Assembly: GCF_036242395.1 (NCBI RefSeq)
Contig: NZ_CP108458.1
Coordinates: 186,001-250,000, forward strand
Length of the DNA stretch: 64,000 nt
Reading direction: 5' to 3'
DNA from: Kitasatospora sp. NBC_01266
GTDB taxonomy: Bacteria > Actinomycetota > Actinomycetes > Streptomycetales > Streptomycetaceae
Every line of letters begins with the position of its first letter. The first letter of the stretch is position 1. The translations under genes were made by a program, and so were the position numbers. Below are positions 43,486 to 62,972 of the stretch, piece after piece. A model generated the notes under the pieces. That model was not told the origin of the DNA, did not search any database, and saw nothing but the letters and a program-made list of their open reading frames with translations.

Positions 43486-43506
43486 GCTCCTAGCCGGCGG
43501 CGCCGC

Positions 43507-43522: not shown

Positions 43523-43860
43523 ACCGCCTCAGCGCCGGGGCTCAGTGCCACCCTCGGCTTCCGCACCGCCTCTCCCGCCATCGCGGCCCGCGCCAGCAGG
43601 AGCGGCGGTGCCGATTGCCCTGAGCCAGGAGTCGAATCGGTCTCATCTACTCAGAACATCCCCTGACACCTAAAGCGGTCATCCGCTCCAAGCCGGACAC
43701 GCACCGGCATTCAGGAAACCGCACCACGATGCCCCCGCACCGGCCGACCACCCCTGACCGGGCAGCACGCCCGAGGCATCACGACAAACCGCTGCAACCC
43801 ACCACGAAAACAAACCGAAACTTCACCGCACACCAGCCGCCGCCCAGTACCTGACCAAAG
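43523..43860. other. Non-coding gap left of the phosphonate cluster
   Basis: These 338 bp contain no convincing reading frame. The middle (43620-43850) is less GC-rich than the surroundings and contains A-rich stretches such as ACGAAAACAAACCGAAAC. No RNA gene, transposase or terminal repeat could be recognised. Confidence 0.4.
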
Positions 43861-43950
43861 GTGGACTGGATCCGCACCCATCCGAGTTGACGTAGTGCGG
43901 GCTGGCTCCGGGCGTTACCTGTCGGCCCTCAGTGGGCGTAGTTAGCATCT
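43861..43950 (+). promoter_or_regulatory. Cluster promoter, copy A (glycosyltransferase-pepM unit)
   Basis: This 90-bp block matches 50761-50850 without gaps at 70 of 90 positions (78%). Conserved parts include CCGAGTTGAC, the 10-bp AGTGGGCGT(A/G) and GTTAGC(A/G)TCT. A -10-like TAGCAT (43943-43948) with TGTCGG 17 bp upstream is the most likely promoter core. It lies about 210 bp before the glycosyltransferase gene. Conservation in two places suggests common regulation of both halves of the cluster. Confidence 0.75.
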
Positions 43951-43958
43951 TTTAGGCC

Positions 43959-44064
43959 GGGCGGTCAGCGCTGCCGAATTCGGGTGGCAGATATTCTGGC
44001 CCGCACCGGCCGACTGCTGATGCCAAGGCAGTTCGTCGCGAAACCGGACGCTACGCGGTTTGAA
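43959..44064 (+). pseudogene. Decayed thiolation-domain fragment
   Basis: Directly after promoter copy A, about 105 bp match the coding sequence around the phosphopantetheine site of the T domain at 51088-51196. The best part reads CCCGCACCGGCC, then GGCAGTTCGTCGCGAA and CCGGACGCT(A/G)CGCGG. Single-base indels destroy the frame, and about 240 bp between promoter and Ser motif are missing. It is a relic of a duplicated NRPS gene start. Confidence 0.75.
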
Positions 44065-44157
44065 TCATGAAGAGGGCAGGTGAAGCGCTTGAGTTCGGCT
44101 TTCGAATTCAAGGATTGAATTTTCCGTCTTCTCCGGAGCTGGACTACAAGGAAACCT

Positions 44158-45354
44158 ATGAGAATCCTTGCGCTGAGCCACGTCCCCGCCTATGGCTCGG
44201 GAAGCGGCATCTACGCCGCGCAGGTGGCAGGGATGCTGGCCCGGCACGGCCACGAAACAGCCCTGCTGACACCGGCGCACTCTCCCTACGACGTTCCTGA
44301 GGGCGTCCGGCTCAACTGGATCGGCACGCCCGGGCATGTCGGCCGGTGGACGTTCGCGACTCCGTTCCCCAGCTTCTCCGGGCACCGTGAGAGCACTCTC
44401 ACGTACGACGACCTGACCCCGGGCGAGATTGCCAGTTATCTGGCCGTCGCAAGGACGGCCGTCAATGACGTGGCAGCGGAGTTCAGGCCGGATGTGATAC
44501 ACGTCAATCACGCGTTTCTGCTCGCCATGGTCGTCGCCGAGGCCGCCCGCTGGCCTTCGGTCGTGGTGTCCCACGGAAGCGAGTTCATGCGTCCGATGAA
44601 CGGCCACCTGCAAGCGCTGCGGCAGCGGGCGCTGGACGGAGCCGGCGTCCTGGCCGCCGTCAGCGCCGCGAGCCGGGACGAACTGGCCGACCATACCGGC
44701 CGGGCACCGTCGGCGATTGCGCTGGTGCCGCCTGGATACGACCCGGAGATCTTCAGGCCGACCAGCGTCGACCGCTCGGCGGTACTGAGCCGACTGGGCA
44801 TGGATCCACTGCGGCCGTGTGCCGCGTATCTCGGGCGGCTCGTCCAGTACAAGCGCGTCGGTGACCTCCTGCGGGCGGTGGCCGCCATTCCCGTTCACCT
44901 CCGCCCGGATGTCCTGATCATGGGAGACGGACCAGAGCGCGGGAAACTGGAGGAGCTCGCTGCAGCCCTGGGGCTGGGACGCATCAGGTTCCACGCGGCG
45001 ACGCGCGATCCCGGACGCGTCGCCGAGGTCATGAATGCCGTGGATGCAGTGGTAATTCCGAGCGAAGACGATCCCTTTCCGATGGCCGGCATAGAGGCCA
45101 TGGCCTGCGGCACGCCCGTCATTACGAGCGATCGGTGCGGGACAGCGGAGCTTGCCGCGAGCGGTCCTGGCGCGAGCTATCGGACCGGAGATGTCGACGC
45201 ACTGGCCGATCTGCTGCGTGAGGCGTGCGCCGAGGACTGGAAACATGCGCGCGGCATGCTCGGCCCGGCGGCTGTCCGAGAATTCACCTGGCGTCATGCA
45301 ACAGACATGCTGACCGCGCTCTACGAGCGCGCCGCCGGAGGGGTTGGCAATTGA
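44158..45354 (+). CDS. Glycosyltransferase family 4
   Basis: This 398-residue GT-B enzyme has the N-terminal Gly-rich loop 'SHVPAYGSGSGIYAAQVAGML', the acceptor-domain 'VVVSHGSEFMRP', and the donor-domain GT4 pattern 'AAYLGRLVQYKRVGDLLRAV' with 'EDDPFPMAGIEAMACGTPV' (the ExxxxxxxE nucleotide-sugar site). GT4 enzymes transfer a sugar from an NDP- or GDP-sugar with retention. The stop overlaps the TTG start of pepM, so it is the first gene of the phosphonate unit. It may glycosylate the phosphonate product or a precursor for self-protection. AAGGAA stands 6 nt before the ATG. Confidence 0.88.
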   Translation: MRILALSHVPAYGSGSGIYAAQVAGMLARHGHETALLTPAHSPYDVPEGVRLNWIGTPGHVGRWTFATPFPSFSGHRESTLTYDDLTPGEIASYLAVARTAVNDVAAEFRPDVIHVNHAFLLAMVVAEAARWPSVVVSHGSEFMRPMNGHLQALRQRALDGAGVLAAVSAASRDELADHTGRAPSAIALVPPGYDPEIFRPTSVDRSAVLSRLGMDPLRPCAAYLGRLVQYKRVGDLLRAVAAIPVHLRPDVLIMGDGPERGKLEELAAALGLGRIRFHAATRDPGRVAEVMNAVDAVVIPSEDDPFPMAGIEAMACGTPVITSDRCGTAELAASGPGASYRTGDVDALADLLREACAEDWKHARGMLGPAAVREFTWRHATDMLTALYERAAGGVGN

Positions 45355-46280: not shown

Positions 46281-46309
46281 GTAGCGGAAACCAGCGAAGG
46301 GCGAGACAG

Positions 46310-47011
46310 ATGAAAGCTTTGTCGGGGGACCTGCCTGAGTTCATGGGAACGCTTACGGTCGGCGGGCTGAGAGAGGCCATGCGAGCCGACGGCTTCGCCA
46401 CGTTCGCCTGTCCGGACGAGGGGGCGGTTGTCGACATCGCGCAGCAGTACGGCACCGTCATGATGCACCGGGACAGCGATGACCGGGGCGTCACGCCGAT
46501 CCGGGAGACCCCTGGACGCGATCCGGCGCGTGACATCGGGCTCACGACAGCGGAGCTCCTCCCCCATACCGACCGCCCCGCGATTGCGGAACCTCCCCGC
46601 GTCCTGCTGCTGTGGTGCCAGGACGCGGGGGCCGAGGGCGGCGAGGCGGTGGTCGTGCGCGCGTCGGACGTCGTACGGCACTTGGGCGAGCGGGACGCGG
46701 GCGCCCTGAGGGCGCTGTGCGATCCGGAGGCGGTGATCTTCCGGACCGGCGGCGATCAGTTCGTCAGTCCGGTGTTCAAGGTCGAGGACGGCATCGTGAC
46801 GGAAGTGCGGCTCCGGTTCGACCCCTTTGTGCACTTCTCCTGCGCCGCGGCCCGCGCCCTGCCGTCGCTGGAGTCCGCCCTTAGCGACGTCGCCCTGACG
46901 TTCACCCTGCGGCCGGGAACGGGTTATGCGTTGCGCAACGACATCTGGCTCCACGGGCGGGCCGCTTACGCGGGTCCCCGTGAGATGTCGAGGGTGATGA
47001 TCGCGTCATGA
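46310..47011 (+). CDS. TauD/TfdA-like Fe(II)/2-oxoglutarate dioxygenase
   Basis: This 233-residue protein has the facial triad of the TauD family: H86 and D88 in 'LLPHTDRPAIAEPPRVLLLW' and a distal His at about 215 in 'LRNDIWLHGRAAY'. Arg residues in 'GPREMSR' follow for 2-oxoglutarate. Such enzymes hydroxylate, desaturate or cleave small acids using O2, and several phosphonate pathways use them. The start follows pepM by 29 bp with an AAGGGCGAG site, and the stop overlaps the GMC oxidoreductase start (ATGA). A role on a PepM-derived phosphonate or on the aminoacyl product is inferred. Confidence 0.85.
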   Translation: MKALSGDLPEFMGTLTVGGLREAMRADGFATFACPDEGAVVDIAQQYGTVMMHRDSDDRGVTPIRETPGRDPARDIGLTTAELLPHTDRPAIAEPPRVLLLWCQDAGAEGGEAVVVRASDVVRHLGERDAGALRALCDPEAVIFRTGGDQFVSPVFKVEDGIVTEVRLRFDPFVHFSCAAARALPSLESALSDVALTFTLRPGTGYALRNDIWLHGRAAYAGPREMSRVMIAS

Positions 47012-48492
47012 GCCGCTCGTCCGGATCGTACGACTACATCGTCGTCGGAAGCGGGTCGGCGGGATCAGTCCTGTCCTACCGCCTGGGACGTGCCGGGCAT
47101 TCGGTGGCCGTCATCGAGGCGGGTGACCGGGGCGACGCCGAGCTGGTCGCCGACCCGCTCGCCTACGGACGATTCCGCCGGACGCGGCACGACTGGAACT
47201 ACGACTCCCTCCCGCAGGCCGAGACCGACGGCCGCACCCACGTCTTCCCGCGCGGGAAGCTCTGGGGCGGATCCAGCAGCGTGAACGGCATGGTGTACAT
47301 CCGGGGCGCCAGAACGGACTTCGACGCCTGGGCGCGAGCCGCGGGCGAGCAGTGGGGATGGGATCGAGCCGTCCGGGCATTCGAGGAACTCGAGGCCGAG
47401 CCGGGACAGCTCGCCGCCACGCTGCCGGGACCGGAACGGACGCTCTGGCACGAGGCGTTCCTGGCGGCATGCGCCCGGCATGGTCTGGCGGCCCGCGGGA
47501 CCTTCGACGACGGAGTCCTCGACGGGGCCGGCTGGACGAGACTGACCATGCGATCGGGCCGCCGCCGCGGCGCGCATGAGGCCTTCTTGCTGCCGGCGCT
47601 CGCCACCTCGCAGGTTGACATGAACGACGAGTGCACGGCGCTGCGGGTACTGTTCGACGGCGACAGGGCCTTCGGTGTCGAATGCCGACGCGGTCGGGAG
47701 ACTGTCCGTCTCACGGCGGAGCGTGAGGTGATCGTCTGCTGCGGGGCTCTCAACTCACCCCAGCTTCTGCTCCGTTCTGGCATCGGGGCGCCGGACGAGC
47801 TTTCCCTGCTCGGTATCCCGGCCGTGTCCGCGGTACCCGGGGTGGGCAGGAACCTCTCCGACCACCTGGTGACCGGAGCGGTGTTCACCGCCGATGAGGG
47901 TGTACCTGCGGGGCCGACGGCCGTGGCGGCCTTCGCGCGGTCGGGCGGCCAGGTGAGCGGCTCGGACCTTCAGCTCTGGCTGAACCGGCGCCGCCACTCG
48001 GCGGAGCACGACGCCGGCGACAGCAGCTTCACGATTCTCTGCGCCCTGGTGCGGCCGGCCAGCAGGGGGACCGTTCGGCTGGCGCCGGGTGGCGGGCACG
48101 CCCGGCCGGTTATCGATACCGGGTATCTCACCGACAAGGCCGACCTGGACGCGCTGGTCCAGGGCGTGCGACTGGCCCGCGAGCTCGGGAGGGTCGAGAG
48201 CTTCTCGTCGGTCCGCCCGGTGGAGGCCCAGCCGGGTGGCAGCCTGGTGAGCGACGACGAGCTTGCCGGGTTCGTGCGTCGATCAGTCACCGGCCAGCAT
48301 CATCCGATGGGCACCTGCCGGATGGGCAGCGATGACGAGTCCGTGGTCGACCCATGTCTTCGCGTGCGCGGCGTTCATGGGCTGCGTGTCGCGGATGCCT
48401 CGGTTTTCCCCTTCCCCGTCGGGACCGGGCCGGACGCCAGCACCCAGATGGTGGCGTGGCGAGCCGCCGACCTGATCCTCAGCGGCGACTGA
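47008..48492 (+). CDS. GMC-family FAD oxidoreductase
   Basis: This 494-residue flavoprotein has the GMC N-terminal dinucleotide motif ('YIVVGSGSAGSVLSYRLG'), signature 1 ('GKLWGGSSSVNGMVYIRG') and signature 2 ('GALNSPQLLLRSGIG'). The C-terminal part has 'TGQHHPMGTCRMG' with catalytic His and 'PVGTGPDASTQMVAWRAADL'. Members oxidise alcohols such as choline to aldehydes with FAD. It is coupled to the first dioxygenase (4-bp overlap) and probably oxidises a hydroxyl group introduced by it. It was not found to resemble any one named phosphonate enzyme. Confidence 0.92.
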   Translation: MSRSSGSYDYIVVGSGSAGSVLSYRLGRAGHSVAVIEAGDRGDAELVADPLAYGRFRRTRHDWNYDSLPQAETDGRTHVFPRGKLWGGSSSVNGMVYIRGARTDFDAWARAAGEQWGWDRAVRAFEELEAEPGQLAATLPGPERTLWHEAFLAACARHGLAARGTFDDGVLDGAGWTRLTMRSGRRRGAHEAFLLPALATSQVDMNDECTALRVLFDGDRAFGVECRRGRETVRLTAEREVIVCCGALNSPQLLLRSGIGAPDELSLLGIPAVSAVPGVGRNLSDHLVTGAVFTADEGVPAGPTAVAAFARSGGQVSGSDLQLWLNRRRHSAEHDAGDSSFTILCALVRPASRGTVRLAPGGGHARPVIDTGYLTDKADLDALVQGVRLARELGRVESFSSVRPVEAQPGGSLVSDDELAGFVRRSVTGQHHPMGTCRMGSDDESVVDPCLRVRGVHGLRVADASVFPFPVGTGPDASTQMVAWRAADLILSGD

Positions 48493-48584
48493 CCGCTGTT
48501 CAGCGCAGTGACCGTCACGGCGGGCGCCCTGGTGGGTCTGCCGGTGCGGCATCAATTTCCGAGGCCGAGAGAAGGGTGTCCAGG

Positions 48585-49466
48585 ATGGGCATGCGGGAAG
48601 CCGACCGCGATCACAATGGGTCCCTCATCATCACACTGCCGCCGGACACCGTGCGGGCGCTGGCCGCCAAAGGCGAGCGGCAGATCAGCGAGGCGGCCGA
48701 CCTGTGCCGGACCGCCGAGGCTGCCCTGGAGAGCTTTCCCGGGTACGTCCGGGTCCGCGGCCTCGGCATCCTGCCTCCGGACCAGTTGGGGGACGCTCTC
48801 ACCGCGCTGTCAGCCCTGTTCGGGCGCCTGATCGAACAGGATCGCGAAGGTACCGTCGTCCGGCGCGTCGAGGATCGCGGGACGAAGATCGGCGAAGGCA
48901 CCCGTGCTCGGTACGCCGACTCCCGGTTCGGCGGGAGCCTGCACACCGACGGCGCGGAGCTGCCCCAGCCGGTGCCCGGCCGGTTCGCGCTACTGTGCGT
49001 CCGGCAGGCGCCCGTCGGGGGCGAGCTCAACCTGGTCCACCTCGCGCAGCTCGAGCCGCGCCTCACCGCCGCGGAACGGGCGCGCCTGCGCAGGCCTTTC
49101 CACTTCGATCGCAGGGGTGACCAGGATCCGACCGAAGCCCCGACGACAGAGAAGGCGATCCTGTTCGACGCCGGGGGAACGACCGGTGTCACGTACCTCC
49201 GTGAATATGTCGAGCTGGGCCACGAGCACCAGCACGCACCACCACTGGCGAGCGCGGATCGTGCCGCGCTCGACGCGCTCGACGCCGCCCTGGGGGCGGA
49301 CGACCTCCGGCTGACGATCCGCCTGGAAGCCGGTGAGGCCGCCATCTTCGACAACCTGCGGCTGCTGCACGGCCGCACGACCTTCGAGGACGACCAGCAC
49401 CGGCGCCGCCTGCTGCTGAGGACGTGGATCCAGCCCGACGACCGCGGCGAGCGGAGCAGTGCGTGA
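48585..49466 (+). CDS. Clavaminate-synthase-like Fe(II)/2-oxoglutarate dioxygenase
   Basis: This 293-residue TauD/TfdA-superfamily protein has H120 and D122 ('FGGSLHTDGAELPQPV'), a distal His at about 262 ('IFDNLRLLHGRTTF') and a 2-oxoglutarate Arg in 'RRRLLLRTWIQ'. The 'SLHTDGAELPQPVPGRFALL' segment is closer to clavaminate synthase-like enzymes that act on amino-acid-derived substrates than to the short enzyme at 46310. It overlaps the alcohol dehydrogenase start by 4 bp (GTGA). An ATG at 48585 with AGAAGGG upstream was chosen; a second ATG two codons later is possible. Confidence 0.87.
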   Translation: MGMREADRDHNGSLIITLPPDTVRALAAKGERQISEAADLCRTAEAALESFPGYVRVRGLGILPPDQLGDALTALSALFGRLIEQDREGTVVRRVEDRGTKIGEGTRARYADSRFGGSLHTDGAELPQPVPGRFALLCVRQAPVGGELNLVHLAQLEPRLTAAERARLRRPFHFDRRGDQDPTEAPTTEKAILFDAGGTTGVTYLREYVELGHEHQHAPPLASADRAALDALDAALGADDLRLTIRLEAGEAAIFDNLRLLHGRTTFEDDQHRRRLLLRTWIQPDDRGERSSA

Positions 49467-50740
49467 TCCCGGCCGCGCGTGACGAATCGACCGGCGGCCG
49501 GCCGGCCCTTGCCGGCGCTCTCGACCGGGAGCAGCTCGGGACCGCCACCGGGTACCGCACGACGCGGTTGTGCCGATCCGCGGCGGAGGCCGAGCAGGCA
49601 CGGCCCGAGCTGAGCGGCGCCGCGCCACAGGTCTTCGGCACCGGCAGGCTGCCCGAAGTGGCCGGGATCGTCGCCACCCACGGGACCGGCCGGGTACTCC
49701 TGGTGGGCAGTGACGCGGCGGTGCGGCGGTCGGGGATCGAGCGCTTCCTGCCTGCGGGGACGCGCAGGTTCAACGGCTTCAGCCCGAACCCGCGACTGCA
49801 GGACGTGCTGGACGGCTGCGACCTCGTCGCCCGCTACCAGCCCGACGTCGTGGTCGGCGTCGGCGGCGGATCCGCCATGGACGCGGCCAAGCTGGCACGC
49901 GTACTGCCGCCCGGCGACGCGGGTCGGCACGCGGTACTGCACAGCGACGTCGGCCTGCTGCGCACGGACGCGCCGGCGCTGGTGCTCGTGCCGACCGTCA
50001 GCGGATCGGGCAGCGAGGTCACCCGGTTCGCGACGGTCTACGACGACGGCCGGAAGTACTCCGTGGACCACGCACGGGTGCTCTCCACGGTTTCGATCGT
50101 GGACCCCGATCTGGCCGCGACCTGTCCACCCGCTGTGGCCTTCAGCTGCGTTCTCGACGCGCTGGCGCACGCTGTCGAGTCCTACTGGTCGTTGCGGTCC
50201 ACCGCCGACTCCCGGGCACTGGCCGGCGAGGCGCTGGTCACTCTGCGGCAGATCGCCGCCGGGGGCCGCCGGCGACTGGACTCCGCGGCCCGCGTCCACA
50301 TCGCGCTGTCCGCGATCCGCGCGGGCCGGGCCATCGACGTGACCCGGACAACGGCCGCCCACGCGTTCGCCTATCCGACCACGGTCCGCTTCGGTGTCCC
50401 ACACGGCCTGGCCTGCGGCCTGCACCTGATCTGGCTGCTGGACCATGTGGCGTCGCTGGTGGAGACCGACTGCGTCGACCCACGAGGGGCGGAGTTCGTC
50501 ACCGCCCGGCTCGACGAGATCGCTTCGCTGCTCGGAGTGGAGCACCCGAAGGAGAGCGCGCACGCGCTGGAAAGCCTGGTTGCAGCTGCCGGCTTCGCCA
50601 CGCGGTTGGGTATGTACGGGGTGACGGGAGCCGACACCGCCGCCATCGTCGGTGACGGTCTCGGGTCGGTCCGAGCCGGCAACCTCCCCGTCCGCCTCCC
50701 GCCGGACGCCGCCCTCACCGCCCTGCGCGACCGGCTCTGA
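49463..50740 (+). CDS. Iron-type (group III) alcohol dehydrogenase, phosphonate-pathway type
   Basis: This 425-residue group III metal-dependent alcohol dehydrogenase has the NAD-binding 'VVVGVGGGSAMDAAKLAR', 'PTVSGSGSEVTRFATVYDDG' and metal-ligand motifs 'LDALAHAVESYWS', 'AAHAFAYP' and 'FGVPHGLACG'. This family includes the phosphonoacetaldehyde reductases PhpC, FomC and DhpG. It could reduce phosphonoacetaldehyde to 2-hydroxyethylphosphonate, or reduce phosphonopyruvate itself, because no phosphonopyruvate decarboxylase is encoded here. The GTG at 49463 overlaps the dioxygenase stop. The substrate is inferred from context. Confidence 0.85.
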   Translation: MIPAARDESTGGRPALAGALDREQLGTATGYRTTRLCRSAAEAEQARPELSGAAPQVFGTGRLPEVAGIVATHGTGRVLLVGSDAAVRRSGIERFLPAGTRRFNGFSPNPRLQDVLDGCDLVARYQPDVVVGVGGGSAMDAAKLARVLPPGDAGRHAVLHSDVGLLRTDAPALVLVPTVSGSGSEVTRFATVYDDGRKYSVDHARVLSTVSIVDPDLAATCPPAVAFSCVLDALAHAVESYWSLRSTADSRALAGEALVTLRQIAAGGRRRLDSAARVHIALSAIRAGRAIDVTRTTAAHAFAYPTTVRFGVPHGLACGLHLIWLLDHVASLVETDCVDPRGAEFVTARLDEIASLLGVEHPKESAHALESLVAAAGFATRLGMYGVTGADTAAIVGDGLGSVRAGNLPVRLPPDAALTALRDRL

Positions 50741-50760
50741 TATGGGCCGCCGTGGTGACG

Positions 50761-50850
50761 GTGGGCTGGGTCCGTACCCGACCGAGTTGACACAGTCCGG
50801 GCCGGCTCGGGGGAATCCCTGTCCGTCCCGAGTGGGCGTGGTTAGCGTCT
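50761..50850 (+). promoter_or_regulatory. Cluster promoter, copy B (NRPS-PKS unit)
   Basis: This block is the second copy of the 90-bp element at 43861-43950 (70 of 90 identical, no gaps, offset exactly 6900 bp). The likely -10 is TAGCGT (50843-50848) with TGTCCG 17 bp upstream. It lies about 140 bp before the T-C gene and starts the NRPS-PKS transcription unit. Confidence 0.75.
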
Positions 50851-50986
50851 GCGGGTGTGTGGTCGCCATTCGTGGCTTCGGGTGGATGGAGGCGGGCTGT
50901 AGCGCCTCCATTGGCACTCGGTTCTTGGATTCTTCGTTGCGGCGACGCGTTTTCCCGGGCAAGGCGAGAGGTGGAGGTGATGGCCG

Positions 50987-52645: not shown

Positions 52646-52726
52646 GTTCTGGGGAGGAGGGCAGGGCCGTCGGGGCCGGGACCTGCCCGCGCACGACAGC
52701 GGATCGTTGACGAGGGGTGGACAGTT

Positions 52727-54079: not shown

Positions 54080-54080
54080 G

Positions 54081-57000
54081 ATGACGGAAGACGGGCACCG
54101 CACGGAGCGGGCACCGGCGGAGCTGGCGGAGCTGGCGGAGCTGGCGGGCACCGTGCTCGGGGTACCGCCGCACGCGCTTGCCGGCTCGTCCTTCGCCGCC
54201 CTGGGCGGAACCTCGCTGCGTGCCGTTGATCTGGCCGCCCGCGCGCAGGCGGCGGGATTCGGACTGGACCTGCCCCGGCTGCTGGGGCGCGAGCCGCTGG
54301 CCGAGGTGCTCGCAACCGCGGTTCGCGTCCGCCCGGTGACGGACCCCGAAGCCGGCTGCGTGGCGGCGACCCGCACCGGGTCGAGGCCCGCGTCCGCGCT
54401 CGAGCTGCACATGCTCCTCGGTGAGGAGACGGGTACTTCGCGCGCCTGGAACCTGCAGTTCAGCGCGGACATCCGAGGCGAACTCGACCAGGGCAGGCTG
54501 GAACGCGCGATCCAGGACGTGGTCGACCGGCACGACGCGCTGCGGACCGTGTTCGAATCCGGTGACGACGGCCTGCGGGCTCGGGTGATCCGGCGGATGC
54601 GGGCACGGATCCTCTCCGGGAACCTGCCCCCGCTCGAACCCGCGGCTGTCATCGACACCGTGCACGCGATGACGAGTCGGGACGCCAACGCCCGGCTCGC
54701 GCCGTTCGTGGCCCCTCCCGTGGTCTTCTCCGTCTACCGCGCGGCTGCGGCCCGCCACATCCTCACCATCCGGATCCATCACGTCATCACCGACGGCTGG
54801 AGCATCGGCCTGCTCTGGCGCGAGGTGTTCGCCGCGTACGTCGACCCTGGCGCGGTTCATCCGCACCCGCGGATCCCGCGGTTCGGCGAGCCTCAGGAGG
54901 CCGTCGTGCGAGCGCGAGTCGCCGAGCTGGCCGGCACCCCGACCGTGCTCGAACCGGTCTGCGACACTCCCCGACCTGCGGAGTTCGACCACGTCGGAGT
55001 GCGGATACCGTTCGCGCTGGACTCGTCCGCGCGCGCCGCCTGCGAGTTGCTGGCGCGCAGCTGCGGCGTGACCCGGAACACCGTGCTGTTCGCCGCCTGG
55101 AACCTGGTGCTGGCGCGGCGCACGGGCTCGACCCGGTTCCTCGTCGGCCTGTCCTGGATGGGGCGCGATACCCCTCGGTCGCGAGAAGCCGTCGGGCTCG
55201 CGACCGCGCTGCTGCCCGTGGTCCATGACACCCAGGGCGTTCGCACTGTACGGGAGTTGCTGGAATCCACCGCCGGCCGGGTGCAGGACGCGCTCCGCAG
55301 CGCGGAGGTTCCTTTCGCCCGGCTCGTGTCCGGTCTCGTCGTGGACCGCGATCCACGACGTCCCACCCTCGTGCAATCCGCCTTCGCGGCACACGACGAG
55401 ATGATTCCGCACGCTCTGTCGGTGCCCGGCCTCGAGGTGCGCCTGCATGAGGGCCACTGCGGCGGATCCGTCTTCGACGCCTTGCTCTACGTCCAGCGCT
55501 GGGAGCGGACTGCGCGGCTGTGTCTGGAGTACAGCTCCTCCGTGTACTCCGCCCGGGAAGCGGCCGAACTGGTCGCGGACTTCTCCCGCGTGCTCACCGC
55601 GATGACGCGGGACCCCGAAGGCGGCGTCGAGCTCGCGCCGCTCCCCACGGACTCCGGCCCCGAGGTCGGCCCCGTGCCGTCGTGGACCTCGCCGCCAGGG
55701 CTGTGGCACCTGTTCGAGCGGAGCGCGCGGCGCCACCTCGACGCCGAGGCGGTCGACGAGGCGGGCGTCGGCACACTGACCTATCGCGAACTGCTGGAAG
55801 CGGCCGAGGAGCAGGCCGCTCGCCTCCACGCGGCTGGGGTACGGACCGGCGACCGCGTCCTGGTCGCGGTTCCCCGCTCCGCCCGCGAGACCGTGGCGAT
55901 CCTCGCGATCCTGCGGTGCGGCGCGGCGTATGTCGGCCTCGAACCCGGTCTGCCGGCATCCGTCGTGGAGCGGATGCTGCGCATCGCCGAGCCGGTCCTC
56001 ATCGTGGCCGACCCGGACCGCGCGGCTGAGCTGGCAGGTCTCGCCGACGCCCCGCGCGTCGTCGGCCCCGTTGATCCTCTTGATCCTCGAAGCGATACTC
56101 GGAGCCGGGCGTCCGGGAGCGGCGTGCTGCCGCCACCGGCCGAGCCGGATCCGGAGCGGATCGCGTACATCGCCTTCACCTCGGGCACCTCGGGGACGCC
56201 GAAGGCGGTACGGATCGCGCAGCGGGGCGTGCTGCGCCTGGTCGACGGGTCCGGCATCGTCGCCGCGGACGCGGCCCGCCGGTTCCTGCGCTTCGCGCCG
56301 CTCTCCTTCGATGCCTCGACCCTTGAGATCTTCGCGCCGCTGGCCCAGGGCGGGGCGATCGTGGTGCTGCCGGATCAACACCCCACCGCGGCCGCGCTCG
56401 CCGCGTTCCTCGAGCGCTACTCGGTCACCGGACTCTGGCTCACCGCGGGCCTGTTCCGACTCGTCGCCGACCACCTGCCCGGCGCGTTCCGCCCGGTGCG
56501 GCAACTGCTCACCGGCGGGGACACGGTTCCGCCGGCCCAGGTTCGCGCCGTGCTCGAACGCTGCCCGGGCATCCGGGTGACCAACGGGTACGGTCCCACG
56601 GAGAACACGACCTTCACCACGGTCCACCACATCGACGACGCGACCGAGGTCGGCACCGTGCTGCCGATCGGCCGGCCGATCGCCGGCACCGGCGTCCTGG
56701 TCGCCGACGACGACGGCCGGCCAGTCGTGCGCGGCGCCGTCGGAGAGCTGCTCACCAGCGGGCTCGGCTTGGCGGTCGACTACGCCGGTGATCCGCAGGA
56801 CACCGCCCGCCGTTTCGTCCTCGCCCCGGACGGCGTGCGCTACTACCGGACCGGCGACCTGGCGCGCTGGGACGGGAACGGTGAGCTGCGCATCCTCGGG
56901 CGCCGCGATCACCAGGTGAAGATCAGAGGCTTCCGCATCGAGCTCGACGCCGTCGGCCGAGCGCTCAGGACCCTCCCCGGCATCACCGACGCAGTCGCCG

Positions 57001-57548
57001 TGGCGGTCGGCGACGACGCCGCCGACCGGCGGATCGTGGCCGGACTCGTGGCCGGACGGGGCGTGACCGCGGCATCGGTGCGTGCCGCCGCGGCGGAGCT
57101 GCTTCCGGAGCATGCGATTCCAGCGCTCTGGGCCCTGGTGGGTGAACTGCCGCTCACCCGGCAGGGCAAAGTGGACGGCGCGGCACTGGTCGCCGCGGCA
57201 CTCAGTACCGCTGACGCGTCGAGCAGTACCGCTGCCGCGTCGAGCGTTACCGCCGACGCGTCGGGCAGCGCGAACCAGGTGGCAGCGGAGCCCGCCACCG
57301 AGAGCCGGCTCGAGGAGCTGGAAGACCGGATCGCGCAGATCTGGGAAGAGGTTCTGGACACCGACGACTTCGGGTACGACGACCGGTTCTTCGAGGTGGG
57401 CGGCACCTCGCTGCTCGTTCCGGTCGTGCGGGAGCGGTTGCGGACGGCGTATCCCGGCTGCGAGATCAAGCTGGTCGATCTGTTCGCCCACACGACCGTC
57501 GCCGAACTGGCGGCGTTCCTCAACACACGGTCGGCGGTGGGGGCGTGA
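54081..57548 (+). CDS. NRPS, T-C-A-T, valine-like adenylation code
   Basis: This 1155-residue protein has a T domain (Ser45 in 'LGGTSLRAV'), a condensation domain (canonical HHVITDG at 233-239), an adenylation domain (about 510-1050: 'FTSGTSGTPKAV', 'NGYGPTENTTF', 'YRTGDLARW', 'LTRQGKVDG') and a second T domain (Ser1110 in 'VGGTSLLV'). The specificity residues read D-A-L-W-L-G-G-T-F-K, close to the valine code D-A-F-W-I-G-G-T-F-K. Valine or a similar aliphatic residue is predicted. The N-terminal T domain has no own adenylation domain and must be loaded in trans. The stop overlaps the PKS start (GTGA). Confidence 0.93.
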   Translation: MTEDGHRTERAPAELAELAELAGTVLGVPPHALAGSSFAALGGTSLRAVDLAARAQAAGFGLDLPRLLGREPLAEVLATAVRVRPVTDPEAGCVAATRTGSRPASALELHMLLGEETGTSRAWNLQFSADIRGELDQGRLERAIQDVVDRHDALRTVFESGDDGLRARVIRRMRARILSGNLPPLEPAAVIDTVHAMTSRDANARLAPFVAPPVVFSVYRAAAARHILTIRIHHVITDGWSIGLLWREVFAAYVDPGAVHPHPRIPRFGEPQEAVVRARVAELAGTPTVLEPVCDTPRPAEFDHVGVRIPFALDSSARAACELLARSCGVTRNTVLFAAWNLVLARRTGSTRFLVGLSWMGRDTPRSREAVGLATALLPVVHDTQGVRTVRELLESTAGRVQDALRSAEVPFARLVSGLVVDRDPRRPTLVQSAFAAHDEMIPHALSVPGLEVRLHEGHCGGSVFDALLYVQRWERTARLCLEYSSSVYSAREAAELVADFSRVLTAMTRDPEGGVELAPLPTDSGPEVGPVPSWTSPPGLWHLFERSARRHLDAEAVDEAGVGTLTYRELLEAAEEQAARLHAAGVRTGDRVLVAVPRSARETVAILAILRCGAAYVGLEPGLPASVVERMLRIAEPVLIVADPDRAAELAGLADAPRVVGPVDPLDPRSDTRSRASGSGVLPPPAEPDPERIAYIAFTSGTSGTPKAVRIAQRGVLRLVDGSGIVAADAARRFLRFAPLSFDASTLEIFAPLAQGGAIVVLPDQHPTAAALAAFLERYSVTGLWLTAGLFRLVADHLPGAFRPVRQLLTGGDTVPPAQVRAVLERCPGIRVTNGYGPTENTTFTTVHHIDDATEVGTVLPIGRPIAGTGVLVADDDGRPVVRGAVGELLTSGLGLAVDYAGDPQDTARRFVLAPDGVRYYRTGDLARWDGNGELRILGRRDHQVKIRGFRIELDAVGRALRTLPGITDAVAVAVGDDAADRRIVAGLVAGRGVTAASVRAAAAELLPEHAIPALWALVGELPLTRQGKVDGAALVAAALSTADASSSTAAASSVTADASGSANQVAAEPATESRLEELEDRIAQIWEEVLDTDDFGYDDRFFEVGGTSLLVPVVRERLRTAYPGCEIKLVDLFAHTTVAELAAFLNTRSAVGA

Positions 57549-60500
57549 CGCGGATCGCGGTCATCGGCTTCGCGGGCCGGTTCCCCGGAGCGCCCGACGT
57601 GGACACGTTCTGGGCGAATCTTCTCGAAGGACGGGAATCGATCAGCCGGTTCACCCCCGGGGAGCTCACCGAGGCCGGCGTGCCCGAACCGGAACACGCG
57701 CAGGCGGACTATGTGGCGGCGCGCGGGGTCGTGGCGGACGCGGACTGCTTCGACGCGGAGTTCTTCGGATACTCGGCGGGTGAGGCGATGCTCACCGATC
57801 CCCAGCAGCGGGTGCTCCTGGAGTGCGCCTGGCACGCGGCGGAGCATGCGGGGTACGGCGCCGGAGACCACCGGACCGGCGTCTTCGTCGGGACCGGGGA
57901 GAACAGCTACCTGGGCCTGCTGGCAGCGAGCGGTGTGCTGACCTCCGAAGACGCTCTGCGACTGGCGCTGAGCAACGCGAAGGACCACGCGGCGACCCGG
58001 ATCGCCTACAAGCTGGGGCTCACCGGTCCCGCCGTGGCCGTGCAGACGGCCTGCTCCACCTCGCTGGTCGCCGTGCACCTCGCCGCGTCGAGCCTGCGCC
58101 TGGGCGACTGCGATCTCGCGCTCGCCGGTGGTGCCTCCATCCAGTTCCCGCAGATCGAGGGCTACCGGTACAGCCCGCACGGAATCCTCTCGCCCGACGG
58201 GCGGTGCCGTCCGTTCGCCGATGACGCGCACGGCACCGTTCCCGGGTCGGGCGCCGCCGTGGTCGTGCTCAAGCGGCTGGACGAGGCGCTCGCCGACGGG
58301 GACACGGTGCACGCGGTCATCCGCGGTTCAGCCGTGAACAACGACGGTTCGCGCAAGGCGGGCTATACCGCACCGAGCCCGCACGGCCAACGTGACGTCA
58401 TCCTCCGAGCCCTTGACGCGGCCGAGGTGGACCCGGCGACGATCGGCTACGTCGAAGCCCACGGAACCGGAACCGAGATGGGCGACGGGATCGAAGTGCA
58501 GGCGCTCACCGAAGCCTTCGGTGTGCACACCGACTTGCGCGAGTACTGCGCGCTCGGCAGCGTCAAGTCGAACGTCGGCCACCTCGACGCCGCCGCCGGC
58601 GTCACCGGGCTCATCAAGGCCGTGCTCGCGGTGCGCGAAGGCGTGATTCCGCGCTCTCTGCACTGCGAGGTCCCGCACCGGGCGATCGCCTGGGGCGAGA
58701 CCCCGTTCGTCCCCGCGCGCGGCACCACGGAGTGGCCGGTGGCGGTGGCACCCCGCCGCGCGGCGGTCAGCGCGTCCGGCATGGGGGGCACCAACGCGCA
58801 CGTCATCCTCGAGCAGGCACCGGCTGACGCCCGGCCCCAGCCCCGGCTCCGGCCCCGGGACGAGCGCGCCCTCGAGGTCCCGGCCCTCATCCCGCTCTCC
58901 GGGGCCGGCGAGACCGCGGTTGCCGAGCTGCGCGATGCGTTGGCCAAGCAGTTGGCGGGCACCGGGGTGAACCTCGCCGATGCGGCCCACACGCTGCGCG
59001 TGGGACGCGCGGCGCAGCCCTGGCGGATCGCGGTGGCGGGCTCGGCGCACGACCTGCCCGCTCTGCTGCGTGCGGCCGTCGCGCGCAAGTACGCGCGCGG
59101 CACGCTGGGGTTCCTCTTCCCCGGCCAGGGGACGCAGCATCCGGGAATGGCCGAAGACCTCTACGAGGCGTTTCCGGTGTTCCGCGAGCGGTTCGACGAG
59201 TGCATGTCCGGCTTCGACCCTTCGCTCGCGTCGACCCTGAGAACACTGATGCTCCGGCGCAGCACGAACGAGGAGGACCGGGCGTCACTGAACCGGACCC
59301 GGCTCGCGCAGCCGGCGCTGTTCGCACTTGAGTACTCGGTGTGCGGCCAGCTCGAATTCTGGGGAATGCGTCCGCGGCTCCTGCTGGGACACAGCGTCGG
59401 CGAGATCACCGCCGCCTGTGTCGCCGGGGCGTTCACCCTCGCCGAAGCCCTGCGCCTGGTCGAGGCACGCGGTCGGCTGATGGACGCGTTGCCGGGCGGA
59501 TCGATGCTCGCCGTGTTCGCCGGAGAGGCCGAGACCACCGCCCTGCTGCCGCGGGGTCTGCAGATCGCGGCGGTGAACGGACCGCGCTCCTGTGTCGTGG
59601 CCGGGCCGACACCGCAGGTCGGGGCCTTCGCCGAGGACGCCGCCGCACGCGGTGTCAGTACGCGCCGCCTGCGCGTTTCGCATGCGTTCCACTCCGCGAT
59701 GATGGCACCCGCCGTCGACGCGTTCCGCACCGTCGCGGAGGCGGTCCACTACCGACGGCCGAGCACGCGGGTGATCTCCAACCTCACCGGAGAGCCTGTG
59801 CGGGAGTACTCGGCGCGGTACTGGGTGGAGCACCTGCTCAGCCCGGTCCGGTTCGCCGACGGTCTCGCCACGGTGCTCGCCGCGCGGCGTCCGGTCCTGA
59901 TCGAGGTGGGCCCGGGCCGATCGCTGGGTCGGCTCGCCCAGGAGATCGACCCGGCCGCGAGTGATCGGTTCCTGTCCGCGCTGCCTGCTGCCGAGGCCGA
60001 CGCGAGCGCCGCGGTGAGCCTGTTGCAGGCGGTGGGTTCCGCGTGGGCCACCGGGGTCGAGGTGGACTGGTCCGCCTTCGGCGCCGGCCGGCGGATCCCG
60101 CTGCCGCTCTACCCCTTCGACAGGCGCAGGCACTGGCCGCAGGACACGCACGACGAAGGGCGCCTGACGGACCGTCCCTCGGCCGCGGACCCGACGGGGG
60201 CCGCCAGGCCGACCCCGCAGGCCGGCGCCGCGGCCGAGGACACGGCCAGGAACGCGGCCGAGGACGCGGCCGAGGACGAGATCGAATCGCTGCTTCGCGC
60301 CACCTGGCACACGCTCCTCGCCGTCACCGTGGACGAGCCGGACGCCGACTTCTTCGCGCTCGGCGGAGACTCGCTGCTCGCCGTGCGGCTGCTCGCGACC
60401 ATCCGGCGCGGGCTCGACCTGCGGCCGACGCTCGATCAGATCCTGAACCGCAGGACCTTTGCCGCCCAGGTCGAGCTGTTGCGCGGCCTCCAGGCGGCCG

Positions 60501-60556
60501 TTCCCACGACAGCGGGCCGGGAATCCGGGCCGACCACGAACACCGGTGGAAGCTGA
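57545..60556 (+). CDS. Type I PKS module, KS-AT-ACP, malonyl-specific
   Basis: This 1003-residue single module has a ketosynthase (Cys170 in 'TACSTSLVA', His306 in 'EAHGTGT', His346 in 'KSNVGHLDAA') and an acyltransferase (Ser617 in GHSVGE; 'HAFH' at 713-716, the malonyl-CoA signature). A carrier domain follows (Ser943 in 'LGGDSLLAV', more PCP-like than ACP-like). No ketoreductase, dehydratase or thioesterase is present, so the extended chain keeps a beta-keto group. Acting after the valine module, it would give a gamma-amino-beta-keto thioester. Start GTG overlaps the NRPS stop by 4 bp; its stop overlaps the next ATG by 1 bp. Confidence 0.94.
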   Translation: MTRIAVIGFAGRFPGAPDVDTFWANLLEGRESISRFTPGELTEAGVPEPEHAQADYVAARGVVADADCFDAEFFGYSAGEAMLTDPQQRVLLECAWHAAEHAGYGAGDHRTGVFVGTGENSYLGLLAASGVLTSEDALRLALSNAKDHAATRIAYKLGLTGPAVAVQTACSTSLVAVHLAASSLRLGDCDLALAGGASIQFPQIEGYRYSPHGILSPDGRCRPFADDAHGTVPGSGAAVVVLKRLDEALADGDTVHAVIRGSAVNNDGSRKAGYTAPSPHGQRDVILRALDAAEVDPATIGYVEAHGTGTEMGDGIEVQALTEAFGVHTDLREYCALGSVKSNVGHLDAAAGVTGLIKAVLAVREGVIPRSLHCEVPHRAIAWGETPFVPARGTTEWPVAVAPRRAAVSASGMGGTNAHVILEQAPADARPQPRLRPRDERALEVPALIPLSGAGETAVAELRDALAKQLAGTGVNLADAAHTLRVGRAAQPWRIAVAGSAHDLPALLRAAVARKYARGTLGFLFPGQGTQHPGMAEDLYEAFPVFRERFDECMSGFDPSLASTLRTLMLRRSTNEEDRASLNRTRLAQPALFALEYSVCGQLEFWGMRPRLLLGHSVGEITAACVAGAFTLAEALRLVEARGRLMDALPGGSMLAVFAGEAETTALLPRGLQIAAVNGPRSCVVAGPTPQVGAFAEDAAARGVSTRRLRVSHAFHSAMMAPAVDAFRTVAEAVHYRRPSTRVISNLTGEPVREYSARYWVEHLLSPVRFADGLATVLAARRPVLIEVGPGRSLGRLAQEIDPAASDRFLSALPAAEADASAAVSLLQAVGSAWATGVEVDWSAFGAGRRIPLPLYPFDRRRHWPQDTHDEGRLTDRPSAADPTGAARPTPQAGAAAEDTARNAAEDAAEDEIESLLRATWHTLLAVTVDEPDADFFALGGDSLLAVRLLATIRRGLDLRPTLDQILNRRTFAAQVELLRGLQAAVPTTAGRESGPTTNTGGS

Positions 60557-62934
60557 TGAATGACAATCCGGAGAATGTGCTCAGCGTCGTCGTCGACGGG
60601 CCCGGCCCCGCGCTCGTCGTCGACTTCAAGGAGTTCTCGACCAATGTCACGCTCTCCGCGGCCTTGGCCGCCGCCCACCCGGACCGGCCGCTACGCCGCA
60701 TCGATGCCGTCGCGGCGGTCACCCGCGCCGGGTCCGGGCTCGAAACGGCCGCCGCCCACTGCGTGGCTCAAGTGATCGACTCCGACTGCGAACCCGGAGT
60801 CATCTTCGGCTACTGCAGTGCCGCCGGACTCGCCCTGCACCTCGCCGCCGGCCTGGAGCGCCGCGGTCTACGCCGACCGCCCGTCATCCTCGTGGAGCCG
60901 AGCTGGCCGACACCGGGGCTCGTCCGGCAGGACGTGGAGGCGTTGAGCGGCGCGGGACCGGGCGGATATCAGGGCCCGCTCGACGTGGCCTCCATCGTCT
61001 CCGCGCTGCGCGGGCAGGTCGAGCGGAACCTGCGGGCGGAGGGGCTCGAAGCCGAGGAGATCGAACTCTGCCTGGAGATCATGGCGGAGCGCCACCGTGA
61101 ATGGTTCGCGTTCCTCGCGGCAGCCGAGGAGGGGGGCGTACCGCCGAACGTACTCCCGGCGGGCGTGCTGCTGGCGGACGACGGGCAGCGCTTCCCGCAC
61201 CCTCGGTGGCCGACAGCGCCGATCCGCCTGGAGCGCCTGCCGGGGCGCAGCGGAGGCCTGCTGGGGCAGCCGGAGGCCATGGCGGTGATCGAGTGCCTGC
61301 GGGAGAAGGCGGTGTCCGATCCCGGTGCTCCCGATCCCGGGTACTGGTTCGGTCCCCAGGCCCGAGCGGACGACCACACCCGTGTGTCGGACCTGCTGCT
61401 CGAGGCGTTCTCGCGGACGCCGGACGCGGACGCGGTGACCGACGAGCGGGAGACGATCAGCTACGCCGAACTTCACCGACGCGCGCTGCGCCTCTCCATG
61501 GCCCTGCGGGGGCGCGGCGTGGGCCGGGAGGAGATCGTCGCGATCTGCGCGGAACGGTCGGTGTCCCTGTGCGTGGCGATCGTGGCCGTGCTGTTGGCCG
61601 ACGGAGCGTACCTTCCGCTCGATCCGAGCTGGCCGAGCGCGCGTCTGGAACGGATCCTCGATGAGGCGGCGCCCCGCGTCGTGCTGGGGGACGCGCGCGG
61701 CCTGGCAGCCCTCGACCGGTCGACCCGGGCTCCGCTGCTCGGCCTCGACGGGTCCGGACCCGACGGCCGTGCGGCGGTGCCGGTCCGCGCCGAGGGTCGC
61801 GGGCCCGGCTCGCCGGTCGCCGACGACCTGGCCTACGTGCTCTACACGTCGGGGTCGACCGGCTGGCCCAAGGGCGTCGCGGTGCCGCACCGCGGCCTGG
61901 TGAACCGTCTGCGCTGGATGCAGGAGCGCTTCGGGATCGGGGTCGGCGACTCGGTGCTCCAGAAGACGCCGTACACGTTCGATGTCTCGGTCTGGGAGTT
62001 CCTCTGGCCACTGATGGCCGGGGCACGTCTGGTGATGGCACGGCCCGAAGGGCATCGGGACCCCGAGTACCTGGCCGAGGTCATCCGCTCCGAGCAGGTG
62101 ACCGTCACCCACTTCGTCCCGTCGATGCTCGCGCTCTACCTCGCCGCCGTCGAACCGCACAGCTGTCCTTCGCTGCGCCAGGTGATCTGCAGCGGCGAGG
62201 CCCTGAGCCCGGCCGTCGCCAACCGCTTCACCGCATCGCACGCGGCCGAACTGCACAATCTCTACGGCCCGACCGAGGCCTCGATCGACGTGACGGCGTG
62301 GACCTGCCGACGGCCCGAGAACGAAACCTCGGTGCCGATCGGCACGCCCATCAGCGGCGTGCTGACCGCCGTGCGGGACGCGCGGGGCCGGCCGGTGACG
62401 GACGGTGGGATCGGCGAGCTCCATCTCGGCGGACCCTGCCTTGCCCGCGGCTACCTGGGCCGGGAGGACCTGACCGGCGCCGCGTTCGTCGAGGACCCCT
62501 GCGCGCCCGGTGTGCGGCTGTACCGCACCGGCGACCTGGTACGCCGGGATGCGGAAGGAGTGCTGCGGTACCACGGCCGCCTCGACCACCAGGTGAAGCT
62601 CAACGGAGTCCGGATCGAGCTCGGTGAGATCGAGTCGTGCGCCAGTGAGTACGCCGCTGTGGAGAATGCGGCGGCAGTGGTCAGGGAGGGCGCCCCCGGG
62701 TCGGTACGACTCGCGTTGTACGTGGCCCCCGAACTCGCTCCGGAGTCGGTTGCCGGACTTCGTGCCCATCTCGCGGGCCGACTGCCCGCGGCCTCGGTGC
62801 CGGCGGTCATCGTCCCCCTCGCCGAACTGCCGGTGACGCCGAACGGCAAGTGCGACCGCGCGGCGCTGCCCGATCCGCCGCGCGCGGGCAGTGGCCGGGG
62901 CGAGAGCCGGCGTCGGGCGCGGCGCCCGGACTGA
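60556..62934 (+). CDS. Thioesterase-like domain (Cys nucleophile) fused to a serine adenylation domain
   Basis: This 792-residue protein has an N-terminal region (1-230) that looks like an alpha/beta-hydrolase thioesterase whose nucleophile elbow reads G-Y-C87-S-A instead of GxSxG. A full adenylation domain follows (about 280-780: 'LYTSGSTGWPKGV', 'NLYGPTEAS', 'YRTGDLVRR', 'LPVTPNGKCDRAALP'). Specificity residues read D-V-W-H-I-S-L-I-D-K, nearly the serine code D-V-W-H-L-S-L-I-D-K. There is no carrier domain, so seryl-AMP must be passed to a T domain in trans, most simply the T-C protein. The thioesterase-like part may release the final chain or edit misloaded carriers. Confidence 0.88.
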   Translation: MNDNPENVLSVVVDGPGPALVVDFKEFSTNVTLSAALAAAHPDRPLRRIDAVAAVTRAGSGLETAAAHCVAQVIDSDCEPGVIFGYCSAAGLALHLAAGLERRGLRRPPVILVEPSWPTPGLVRQDVEALSGAGPGGYQGPLDVASIVSALRGQVERNLRAEGLEAEEIELCLEIMAERHREWFAFLAAAEEGGVPPNVLPAGVLLADDGQRFPHPRWPTAPIRLERLPGRSGGLLGQPEAMAVIECLREKAVSDPGAPDPGYWFGPQARADDHTRVSDLLLEAFSRTPDADAVTDERETISYAELHRRALRLSMALRGRGVGREEIVAICAERSVSLCVAIVAVLLADGAYLPLDPSWPSARLERILDEAAPRVVLGDARGLAALDRSTRAPLLGLDGSGPDGRAAVPVRAEGRGPGSPVADDLAYVLYTSGSTGWPKGVAVPHRGLVNRLRWMQERFGIGVGDSVLQKTPYTFDVSVWEFLWPLMAGARLVMARPEGHRDPEYLAEVIRSEQVTVTHFVPSMLALYLAAVEPHSCPSLRQVICSGEALSPAVANRFTASHAAELHNLYGPTEASIDVTAWTCRRPENETSVPIGTPISGVLTAVRDARGRPVTDGGIGELHLGGPCLARGYLGREDLTGAAFVEDPCAPGVRLYRTGDLVRRDAEGVLRYHGRLDHQVKLNGVRIELGEIESCASEYAAVENAAAVVREGAPGSVRLALYVAPELAPESVAGLRAHLAGRLPAASVPAVIVPLAELPVTPNGKCDRAALPDPPRAGSGRGESRRRARRPD

Positions 62935-62972
62935 GGAGGATCCGAGTCCGGCCGTGAGGCACCGAGCCGTCG

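What the first reader, a model, noticed from the sequence alone, without database searches (positions are those of the whole stretch)
43861..62934. Hybrid phosphonate-NRPS-PKS gene cluster
A bona fide PEP phosphomutase (EDKX5NS) sits in one gene cluster with a valine-type NRPS, a malonyl-specific KS-AT-ACP module, a stand-alone serine adenylation protein, two 2-oxoglutarate dioxygenases, a GMC oxidase, an iron-type dehydrogenase and a glycosyltransferase. Described phosphonates use small peptide assembly, ATP-grasp ligation or tRNA-dependent ligation; I know of none with an in-line type I PKS module. The product is inferred to be a (possibly glycosylated) phosphonate joined to a Ser/Val/beta-keto unit.
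Basis: partly seen in the sequence, partly recalled or inferred. Interest (0 to 1): 0.95.

Follow-up and report, generated by a model that had tools for sequence, protein, structure and literature searches.

The report
Phosphonate operon captured by tetramate cluster
In one actinobacterial genome a gene set predicted to make a carbon-phosphorus compound lies beside a peptide-polyketide assembly line whose releasing enzyme is predicted to close a ring, and both begin with related DNA whose core is seen at no other place in that genome within two mismatches, so the two likely work together to make a phosphonate of an undescribed kind.

Summary
Eleven co-directional genes (44158-62934) encode a true PEP mutase, two 2OG dioxygenases, a GMC oxidase, a phosphonoacetaldehyde-reductase-like Fe-ADH and a glycosyltransferase, then PCP-C, MFS, PCP-C-A(Val-like)-PCP, KS-AT-ACP, and a Ser-like A domain fused behind an NcmC-like cysteine (Dieckmann-type) cyclase. 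The NRPS-PKS part recurs as a cassette in three relatives without PepM, and PepM+Fe-ADH+dioxygenase recur without it, so the halves have separate histories. What joins them here: a 91-bp leader, 78% identical, before both operons; its core has no other match within 2 mismatches in 8.57 Mb, and the first copy is followed by a decayed PCP fragment of the second operon's first gene. The phosphonate operon thus lies between two copies of the NRPS leader, which argues for capture and co-regulation. Around 99 other PepM-type loci (up to 10 kb each side; 80 GTDB, 19 same genus) none had a KS-AT pair; this genome's own second pepM locus does, likely by chance. The product, the attachment of the phosphonate and the pull on phosphonopyruvate (no decarboxylase in the cluster) are inferred. 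New variant of a known kind.

The parts
43860..43950 (+). leader element, copy 1 (before the phosphonate operon)
   Evidence: 78% identical over 91 bp to 50760-50850, E 3e-16 in the window; 0 of 500 shuffles reach the score; 25-base core at 0 mismatches only here and at copy 2, one other place at 3 mismatches
43981..44063 (+). decayed fragment of the PCP domain of the PCP-C gene
   Evidence: matches the 5' part of gene 50987-52645 (score 44.0, shuffle maximum 31.0, 0 of 500); translated pieces match the PCP-C family best, in two frames
44158..45354 (+). glycosyltransferase, GT4 type
   Evidence: PF00534, PF13439
45351..46280 (+). PepM, phosphoenolpyruvate mutase (TTG start inferred from overlap with the previous stop)
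   Evidence: TIGR02320 368 bits, over cut-off; EDKSGLKQNS; tree
46310..47011 (+). 2OG-Fe(II) dioxygenase 1
   Evidence: PF02668; nearest solved: gamma-butyrobetaine dioxygenase E 2.1e-6, TmpA phosphonate hydroxylase E 6.9e-6
47008..48492 (+). GMC-family FAD oxidoreductase
   Evidence: PF00732, PF05199
48585..49466 (+). 2OG-Fe(II) dioxygenase 2, FrbJ-like (start uncertain)
   Evidence: PF02668; nearest solved structure FrbJ, E 1.2e-8; 46-47% relatives near PepM and Fe-ADH in G219 and G111
49463..50740 (+). iron-type dehydrogenase, phosphonoacetaldehyde-reductase-like
   Evidence: best NCBIfam TIGR03405 Phn_Fe-ADH 171 bits, below its cut-off 423.7; many NCBI-named relatives are called phosphonoacetaldehyde reductase
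50760..50850 (+). leader element, copy 2 (before the NRPS-PKS operon)
50987..52645 (+). PCP-C didomain; condensation motif DHMVSDS (first His replaced, second His kept)
   Evidence: PF00550 + PF00668; D238, H239, D243 invariant in 7 of 7
52727..54079 (+). MFS transporter of the cassette
   Evidence: PF07690; relatives in the cassettes of G128, G110, G364
54081..57548 (+). NRPS: PCP-C-A(Val-like)-PCP
57545..60556 (+). type I PKS module KS-AT(malonyl-type)-ACP
60556..61305 (+). NcmC-like cysteine cyclase domain (GYCSAA)
   Evidence: profile of 5 family members hits NcmC E 6.9e-8 over 47-254 of 260; model (pLDDT 61.7) has NcmC as its four best Foldseek rows, best E 2.7e-8
61306..62934 (+). adenylation domain, Ser-like, fused to the cyclase
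   Evidence: PF00501 289 bits; pocket letters

Best explanation
This is likely one 11-gene cluster that is predicted to make a phosphonate joined to a Ser-Val-malonyl peptide-polyketide chain, which an NcmC-like cysteine cyclase would release as a tetramic-acid-type ring. Shown by sequence: the enzyme families, their order and overlaps, the leader element shared by both operons and the restriction of its core to these two places within 2 mismatches, the PCP remnant, and the cassette's existence without PepM elsewhere. Inferred: PepM turns PEP into phosphonopyruvate; this is pulled forward either by the lone phosphonopyruvate decarboxylase of the genome (C1:1694670) plus the Fe-ADH, giving 2-hydroxyethylphosphonate, or by direct reduction by the Fe-ADH; the FrbJ-like dioxygenase, the second dioxygenase and the GMC oxidase oxidise the carbon backbone, likely to a phosphono-carboxylic acid; this acid is carried by the extra PCP and passed by its unusual C domain (DHxxxDS) to the serine that the fused A domain loads on the N-terminal PCP of the NRPS; Val and malonyl are added in line; the cyclase releases a pyrrolidine-2,4-dione; the GT may add a sugar. 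History, inferred: the phosphonate operon was captured between two copies of the leader of a pre-existing tetramate-type cassette.
For: Leader: 91 bp at 78% identity before both operons; 25-base core with 0 mismatches at two places in 8.57 Mb, one further place at 3 mismatches, reversed control 0; PCP remnant behind copy 1. Operon structure: overlapping stops and starts GT/PepM (start inferred), TauD1/GMC, TauD2/Fe-ADH, NRPS/PKS, PKS/cyclase-A. PepM over cut-off with motif. Fe-ADH closest to the phosphonate Fe-ADH model and to proteins named phosphonoacetaldehyde reductase; in 43 of 80 PepM loci an Fe-ADH relative lies nearby. Dioxygenase 2 nearest to FrbJ (a phosphonate hydroxylase, recalled) and near PepM+Fe-ADH in two other genomes. 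Cyclase NcmC-like by profile and fold, Cys kept in 5 of 5. Cassette with Val-like and Ser-like pockets in G128, G110, G364. Phosphonate half of different origin: PepM in a 100/100 group without any of the 20 other same-genus PepM-type rows; GC3 0.78-0.89 against 0.875-0.895.
Against: No enzyme in the cluster is seen to activate a phosphonate for the extra PCP: two A domains, both explained by Ser and Val. No phosphonopyruvate decarboxylase, aminotransferase or phosphonomethylmalate synthase among the 11 genes. The 12 closest Fe-ADH relatives (68-80%) and the 7 PCP-C relatives in the protein database share no contig length, so elsewhere the halves look unlinked. The gene order (NRPS before PKS) is not the usual Dieckmann order. 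A His near the cyclase's C-terminus is kept in the close family but not in G364 and G380. The Fe-ADH is under the TIGR03405 cut-off. Both halves together were found in one genome only. No sigma-70-type promoter was found in 43400-63100.
Confidence: 0.5

Rival explanations
1. Two neighbouring, independent clusters: a small phosphonate pathway (44158-50740) and a tetramate-type NRPS-PKS (50987-62934) that merely share a regulator through the duplicated leader and make two products.
For: Each half occurs alone in relatives; the closest Fe-ADH and the PCP-C relatives lie on contigs of different length; GC3 and PepM ancestry differ; no enzyme links phosphonate to PCP.
Against: Same strand, 246-bp gap, leader core shared and restricted to the two places within 2 mismatches, PCP remnant at the far side of the phosphonate operon, no exporter in the phosphonate half, an extra PCP-C without an A domain in the NRPS half.
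Confidence: 0.3
2. Same cluster, other chain order (malonomycin-like, recalled): Ser is extended by the PKS, then joined to Val (or Val extended and joined to Ser on the extra PCP), and the cyclase does a true Dieckmann closure to a 3-acyl tetramic acid; the phosphonate caps the free amine or the hydroxyl.
For: The cyclase is of the Dieckmann family and is fused to the Ser-like A domain here, in P0001 and in P0002; Dieckmann closure needs an aminoacyl thioester at the end (established chemistry, recalled).
Against: In G128 and G364 cyclase and A domain are separate genes. In the G364 cassette the NRPS gene shows one C motif and no PCP-C relative was found in L128, which fits Ser-Val-malonyl in line; further flanks were not scanned for C domains.
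Confidence: 0.15
3. The phosphonate is used without staying in the product, for instance as a leaving group or as a donor of a C2 unit, so that the end product is a phosphorus-free tetramate.
For: No ligase for a phosphonate is visible; some dioxygenases cleave C-P bonds (recalled).
Against: No known C-P cleaving family (PhnX, PhnZ type) among the Pfam matches of the 11 genes.
Confidence: 0.05

Closest known systems
Phosphonate clusters with PepM, Ppd and Fe-ADH (2-hydroxyethylphosphonate branch)
   Same: PepM with EDKX5NS; Fe-ADH of the phosphonoacetaldehyde-reductase kind; 2OG dioxygenase nearby as in G219
   Different: No Ppd in the cluster; NRPS-PKS part added; GMC oxidase
Pantaphos-like (Hvr) clusters
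   Same: nearest PepM relatives: Amycolatopsis bartoniae 61%, Nocardiopsis 57%, Pantoea agglomerans plasmid 54%; their neighbours (LLM-type oxidoreductase, aconitase-like, methyltransferase) look pantaphos-like by eye, name recalled
   Different: none of those neighbour families among the 11 genes; in 0 of the 80 nearest PepM loci was an NRPS-PKS relative found
Phosphinothricin tripeptide type (phosphonate with NRPS; recalled)
   Same: PepM pathway feeding an NRPS in one cluster
   Different: no PKS module and no Dieckmann-type cyclase there (recalled, not tested)
Tetramate NRPS-PKS lines with NcmC/TrdC/SlgL cyclases (nocamycin, tirandamycin)
   Same: NcmC-like cyclase domain with Cys, NRPS and PKS modules (PMC5466765, passages)
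   Different: one PKS module only, cyclase fused to a Ser-like A domain, phosphonate operon; NRPS gene precedes PKS gene
Unnamed cassette in G110 (Streptacidiphilus jiangxiensis), G128 and G364
   Same: MFS, PCP-C-A(Val-like)-PCP, KS-AT-ACP, cyclase, A(Ser-like) at 30-65% identity
   Different: no PepM hit in these genomes; asparagine-synthase-like genes, by eye, beside the cassette in G110 and G128

Membership tests
PepM-dependent phosphonate cluster | PEP mutase with EDKX5NS, over the equivalog cut-off | tested here: met
PepM-dependent phosphonate cluster | coupled enzyme that removes phosphonopyruvate | tested here: inconclusive
   Fe-ADH present (below TIGR03405 cut-off); Ppd not in the cluster, one elsewhere in the genome
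PepM-dependent phosphonate cluster | phosphonate produced (31P NMR) | not testable with these tools
   needs the strain or a host
Pantaphos (Hvr) family | PepM of that clade | tested here: inconclusive
   nearest by identity to pantaphos-like loci, but the supported group of the tree also holds PepMs of many other phyla and clusters
Pantaphos (Hvr) family | phosphonomethylmalate synthase and aconitase-like genes | tested here: not met
   none among the Pfam matches of the 11 genes
Tetramate lines with NcmC-type Dieckmann cyclase | alpha/beta-hydrolase cyclase of the NcmC family with a cysteine nucleophile position | tested here: met
Tetramate lines with NcmC-type Dieckmann cyclase | Cys-Asp-His triad | tested here: inconclusive
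   Cys kept in 5 of 5; His215 in 3 of 5 rows; Asp not assigned
Tetramate lines with NcmC-type Dieckmann cyclase | aminoacyl-PCP module last, after a PKS module | tested here: inconclusive
   gene order is NRPS then PKS; order of use unknown
Hybrid NRPS-PKS | C-A-PCP and KS-AT-ACP with intact motifs | tested here: met
   HHVITDG, GGTS, TACS, GHSVG, GGDS

The most novel reading that the evidence does not exclude
The first phosphonate-polyketide: a phosphono-acyl starter is built by PepM, Fe-ADH, two dioxygenases and a GMC oxidase, loaded on a dedicated PCP, transferred by a DHxxxDS condensation domain to Ser-Val, extended once with malonate and closed to a phosphonate-capped tetramic acid; the pathway arose when a foreign phosphonate operon was captured between duplicated leaders of a tetramate cassette and so came under its control.
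Probability: 0.38. Interest if true: 0.88.

Novelty: new variant of a known kind. Interest (0 to 1): 0.72.

Why it matters
Phosphonates are often potent enzyme inhibitors, and tetramic acids include metal-binding antibiotics (both recalled); a natural joint of the two would be a new scaffold class and would show that C-P chemistry can feed a type I PKS line. The duplicated leader with a PCP remnant is a readable trace of how one pathway may have captured another, and it makes the link directly testable by single knock-outs and reporter fusions.

Tried and rejected
Cyclisation (Cy) reading of the PCP-C motif DHMVSDSWS: rejected, since the second His is invariant in 7 of 7 relatives while the last Ser is not, and I recognise no solved Cy domain among the 24 matches. 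Phosphonopyruvate decarboxylase hidden in the window: only weak thiamine-enzyme matches there, far under cut-off; 13 of 14 control genomes ring as weakly. MbtH-like gene in the 246-bp gap: one frame is open across it but reads unlike MbtH by eye; not searched. RNA element in the leader: no Rfam match there; two sub-threshold microRNA-family matches lie elsewhere in 43400-51300. Whole-protein model of cyclase-A: too poor (pLDDT 39.5); the domain alone was modelled instead. Leader search by similarity in the own genome missed the known second copy, so its empty answers, there and in 12 other genomes, show nothing; the pattern search was used for the own genome only. Second pepM locus of the genome as a second hybrid: three of its genes (pepM, FAD-NAD, DUF6002) recur in G055 without the modular PKS in the 20 kb read, so adjacency is likely chance.

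Literature: in the listings (titles and abstract starts) I saw no paper on a PepM cluster with an in-line type I PKS; others (phosphonopyruvate reductase; FzmG) found no paper at all; two searches were on tetramates. Papers opened: PMC12723261 (outline, section 7, passages), PMC13302981, PMC12871164, PMC11867202 and PMC5466765 (passages). The two large genome-mining papers of 2013 and 2015 are not held and were not checked, so novelty rests on an open-licence part of the literature.

The loci of G219, G111 and G380 were in the database but not in its printed counts; G219 has an NRPS-like frame at its contig end, about 13 kb from PepM.
Full report
Place. The window is G000:C1:186001-250000 of an 8.57-Mb, 99.6% complete genome. 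The genus is not named by the tools; the family holds Streptacidiphilus jiangxiensis (the cyclase domain of G110 reads like P0002), hence Streptomycetaceae by recalled taxonomy.

Anatomy. Eleven genes run on the + strand from 44158 to 62934. Operon 1: GT4 glycosyltransferase, PepM, dioxygenase 1, GMC oxidase, dioxygenase 2, Fe-ADH. Operon 2, after a 246-bp gap: PCP-C, MFS, PCP-C-A-PCP, KS-AT-ACP, cyclase-A. Stops and starts overlap at GT/PepM (start inferred), TauD1/GMC, TauD2/Fe-ADH, NRPS/PKS and PKS/cyclase-A. To the right follow a minus-strand DUF6545 gene and genes that do not look biosynthetic by eye. PepM passes TIGR02320 (368 against 319.6 bits) and has EDKSGLKQNS. The Fe-ADH is closest to the phosphonate Fe-ADH model TIGR03405 but under its cut-off (171 against 423.7); many NCBI-named relatives are called phosphonoacetaldehyde reductase. 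Dioxygenase 2 has FrbJ as nearest solved structure (E 1.2e-8), dioxygenase 1 gamma-butyrobetaine dioxygenase and TmpA.

Relatives. Of 394 family genomes, 5 (own included) had the cyclase domain at E 1e-8 and 3 (own included) an Fe-ADH at E 1e-40. G128, G110 and G364 carry the cassette MFS, PCP-C-A-PCP, KS-AT-ACP, cyclase, A, with Val-like and Ser-like pockets and no PepM hit at E 1e-15; the other three genomes of that test, G380, G219 and G111, had one. G380 has a remote cyclase-domain relative and a PepM 6.8 Mb apart. G110 also has a C domain with the signature DHLVSDLWS beside the cassette. G219 and G111 carry PepM, Fe-ADH and a dioxygenase-2 relative; in G219 a thiamine-diphosphate enzyme lies between PepM and Fe-ADH, which reads like a phosphonopyruvate decarboxylase, and an NRPS-like frame lies at the contig end about 13 kb off. 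In the protein database cyclase-A had 2 relatives, PCP-C 7, all from sources marked jgi or lgn, Fe-ADH 293 at E 1e-30, 120 listed. The 12 closest Fe-ADHs (own left out) and the 7 PCP-Cs share no contig length, which speaks against linkage in those organisms.

What joins the halves. A 91-bp element at 43860-43950 is 78% identical to 50760-50850, each shortly before its operon (0 of 500 shuffles). The core GAGTTGACNNAGTNCGGGCNGGCTC matches the genome without mismatch at these two places, at one further place with 3 mismatches, and not at all in the reversed control; a second stretch of the element, AGTGGGCGTNGTTAGCNTCT, matches the window only at the two places with up to 3 mismatches. The core pattern was drawn from the two copies themselves. 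Behind copy 1 lies a decayed fragment of the PCP of the PCP-C gene (43981-44063). So the phosphonate operon lies between two copies of the leader of the NRPS operon. PepM belongs to a 100/100 group with Amycolatopsis, Nocardiopsis, Cellulomonas and PepMs of other phyla, without any of the 20 other same-genus rows, the second PepM of this genome included. GC3 is 0.78 (GT) to 0.89 (Fe-ADH) in operon 1 and 0.875-0.895 in operon 2. I read this as capture of a foreign phosphonate operon.

How rare. In the 80 nearest GTDB PepM loci (of 191 confirmed) none had a KS, AT, C, A, GMC, GT, dioxygenase 1 or 2, PCP-C or cyclase relative at E 1e-10 within the DNA held (up to 10 kb each side, many contigs shorter); 43 of 80 had an Fe-ADH relative. 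In 19 other genomes of the genus (15 with EDKX5NS, 4 without) 0 of 19 had an AT, 1 of 19 a lone KS (34%), 1 of 19 a C domain, 9 of 19 an A-domain-like protein. The second pepM locus of this genome does have a KS and an AT beside it. PMC12723261 (section 7 read) reports one pepM per genome in its set except in three strains; this genome has two with EDKX5NS, the second just under the TIGR02320 cut-off (297.5 against 319.6).

Limits. The product is not known; no activation of a phosphonate for the extra PCP is visible; the Ppd lies about 1.46 Mb from pepM; both halves together were seen in one genome only.

Noticed in passing
G000:C1:1691000-1744000 (L006, L139, L140): A second pepM (EDKCFPKVNS, 297.5 bits, under the TIGR02320 cut-off) with Ppd, FAD-NAD(P)-binding and DUF6002 genes sits next to a multi-gene modular type I PKS. 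PepM (86%), FAD-NAD (81%) and DUF6002 (89%) recur in G055 without that PKS in the 20 kb read, so the adjacency is likely chance.
   Followed up: partly
window 44088-44112: A hairpin with 11 pairs followed by T-rich DNA lies between the PCP remnant and the GT start; it may be an attenuator or terminator, but the number of such sites in the region is at chance level.
   Followed up: no
G110 (S. jiangxiensis) and G128 cassettes: Asparagine-synthase-like genes (by eye) lie beside the tetramate-type cassette; I know of no description of this cassette, which is of interest without phosphonate.
   Followed up: partly
G023:C12:39400-59300 (L167): PepM with an Fe-ADH relative (36%), a C domain (27%) and an A domain (36%) within 10 kb: perhaps a phosphonate NRPS cluster of the phosphinothricin kind.
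   Followed up: no
P0076, P0090, P0094: Proteins that join thiamine-diphosphate enzyme domains to this Fe-ADH family; two of them are named phosphonopyruvate decarboxylase.
   Followed up: no
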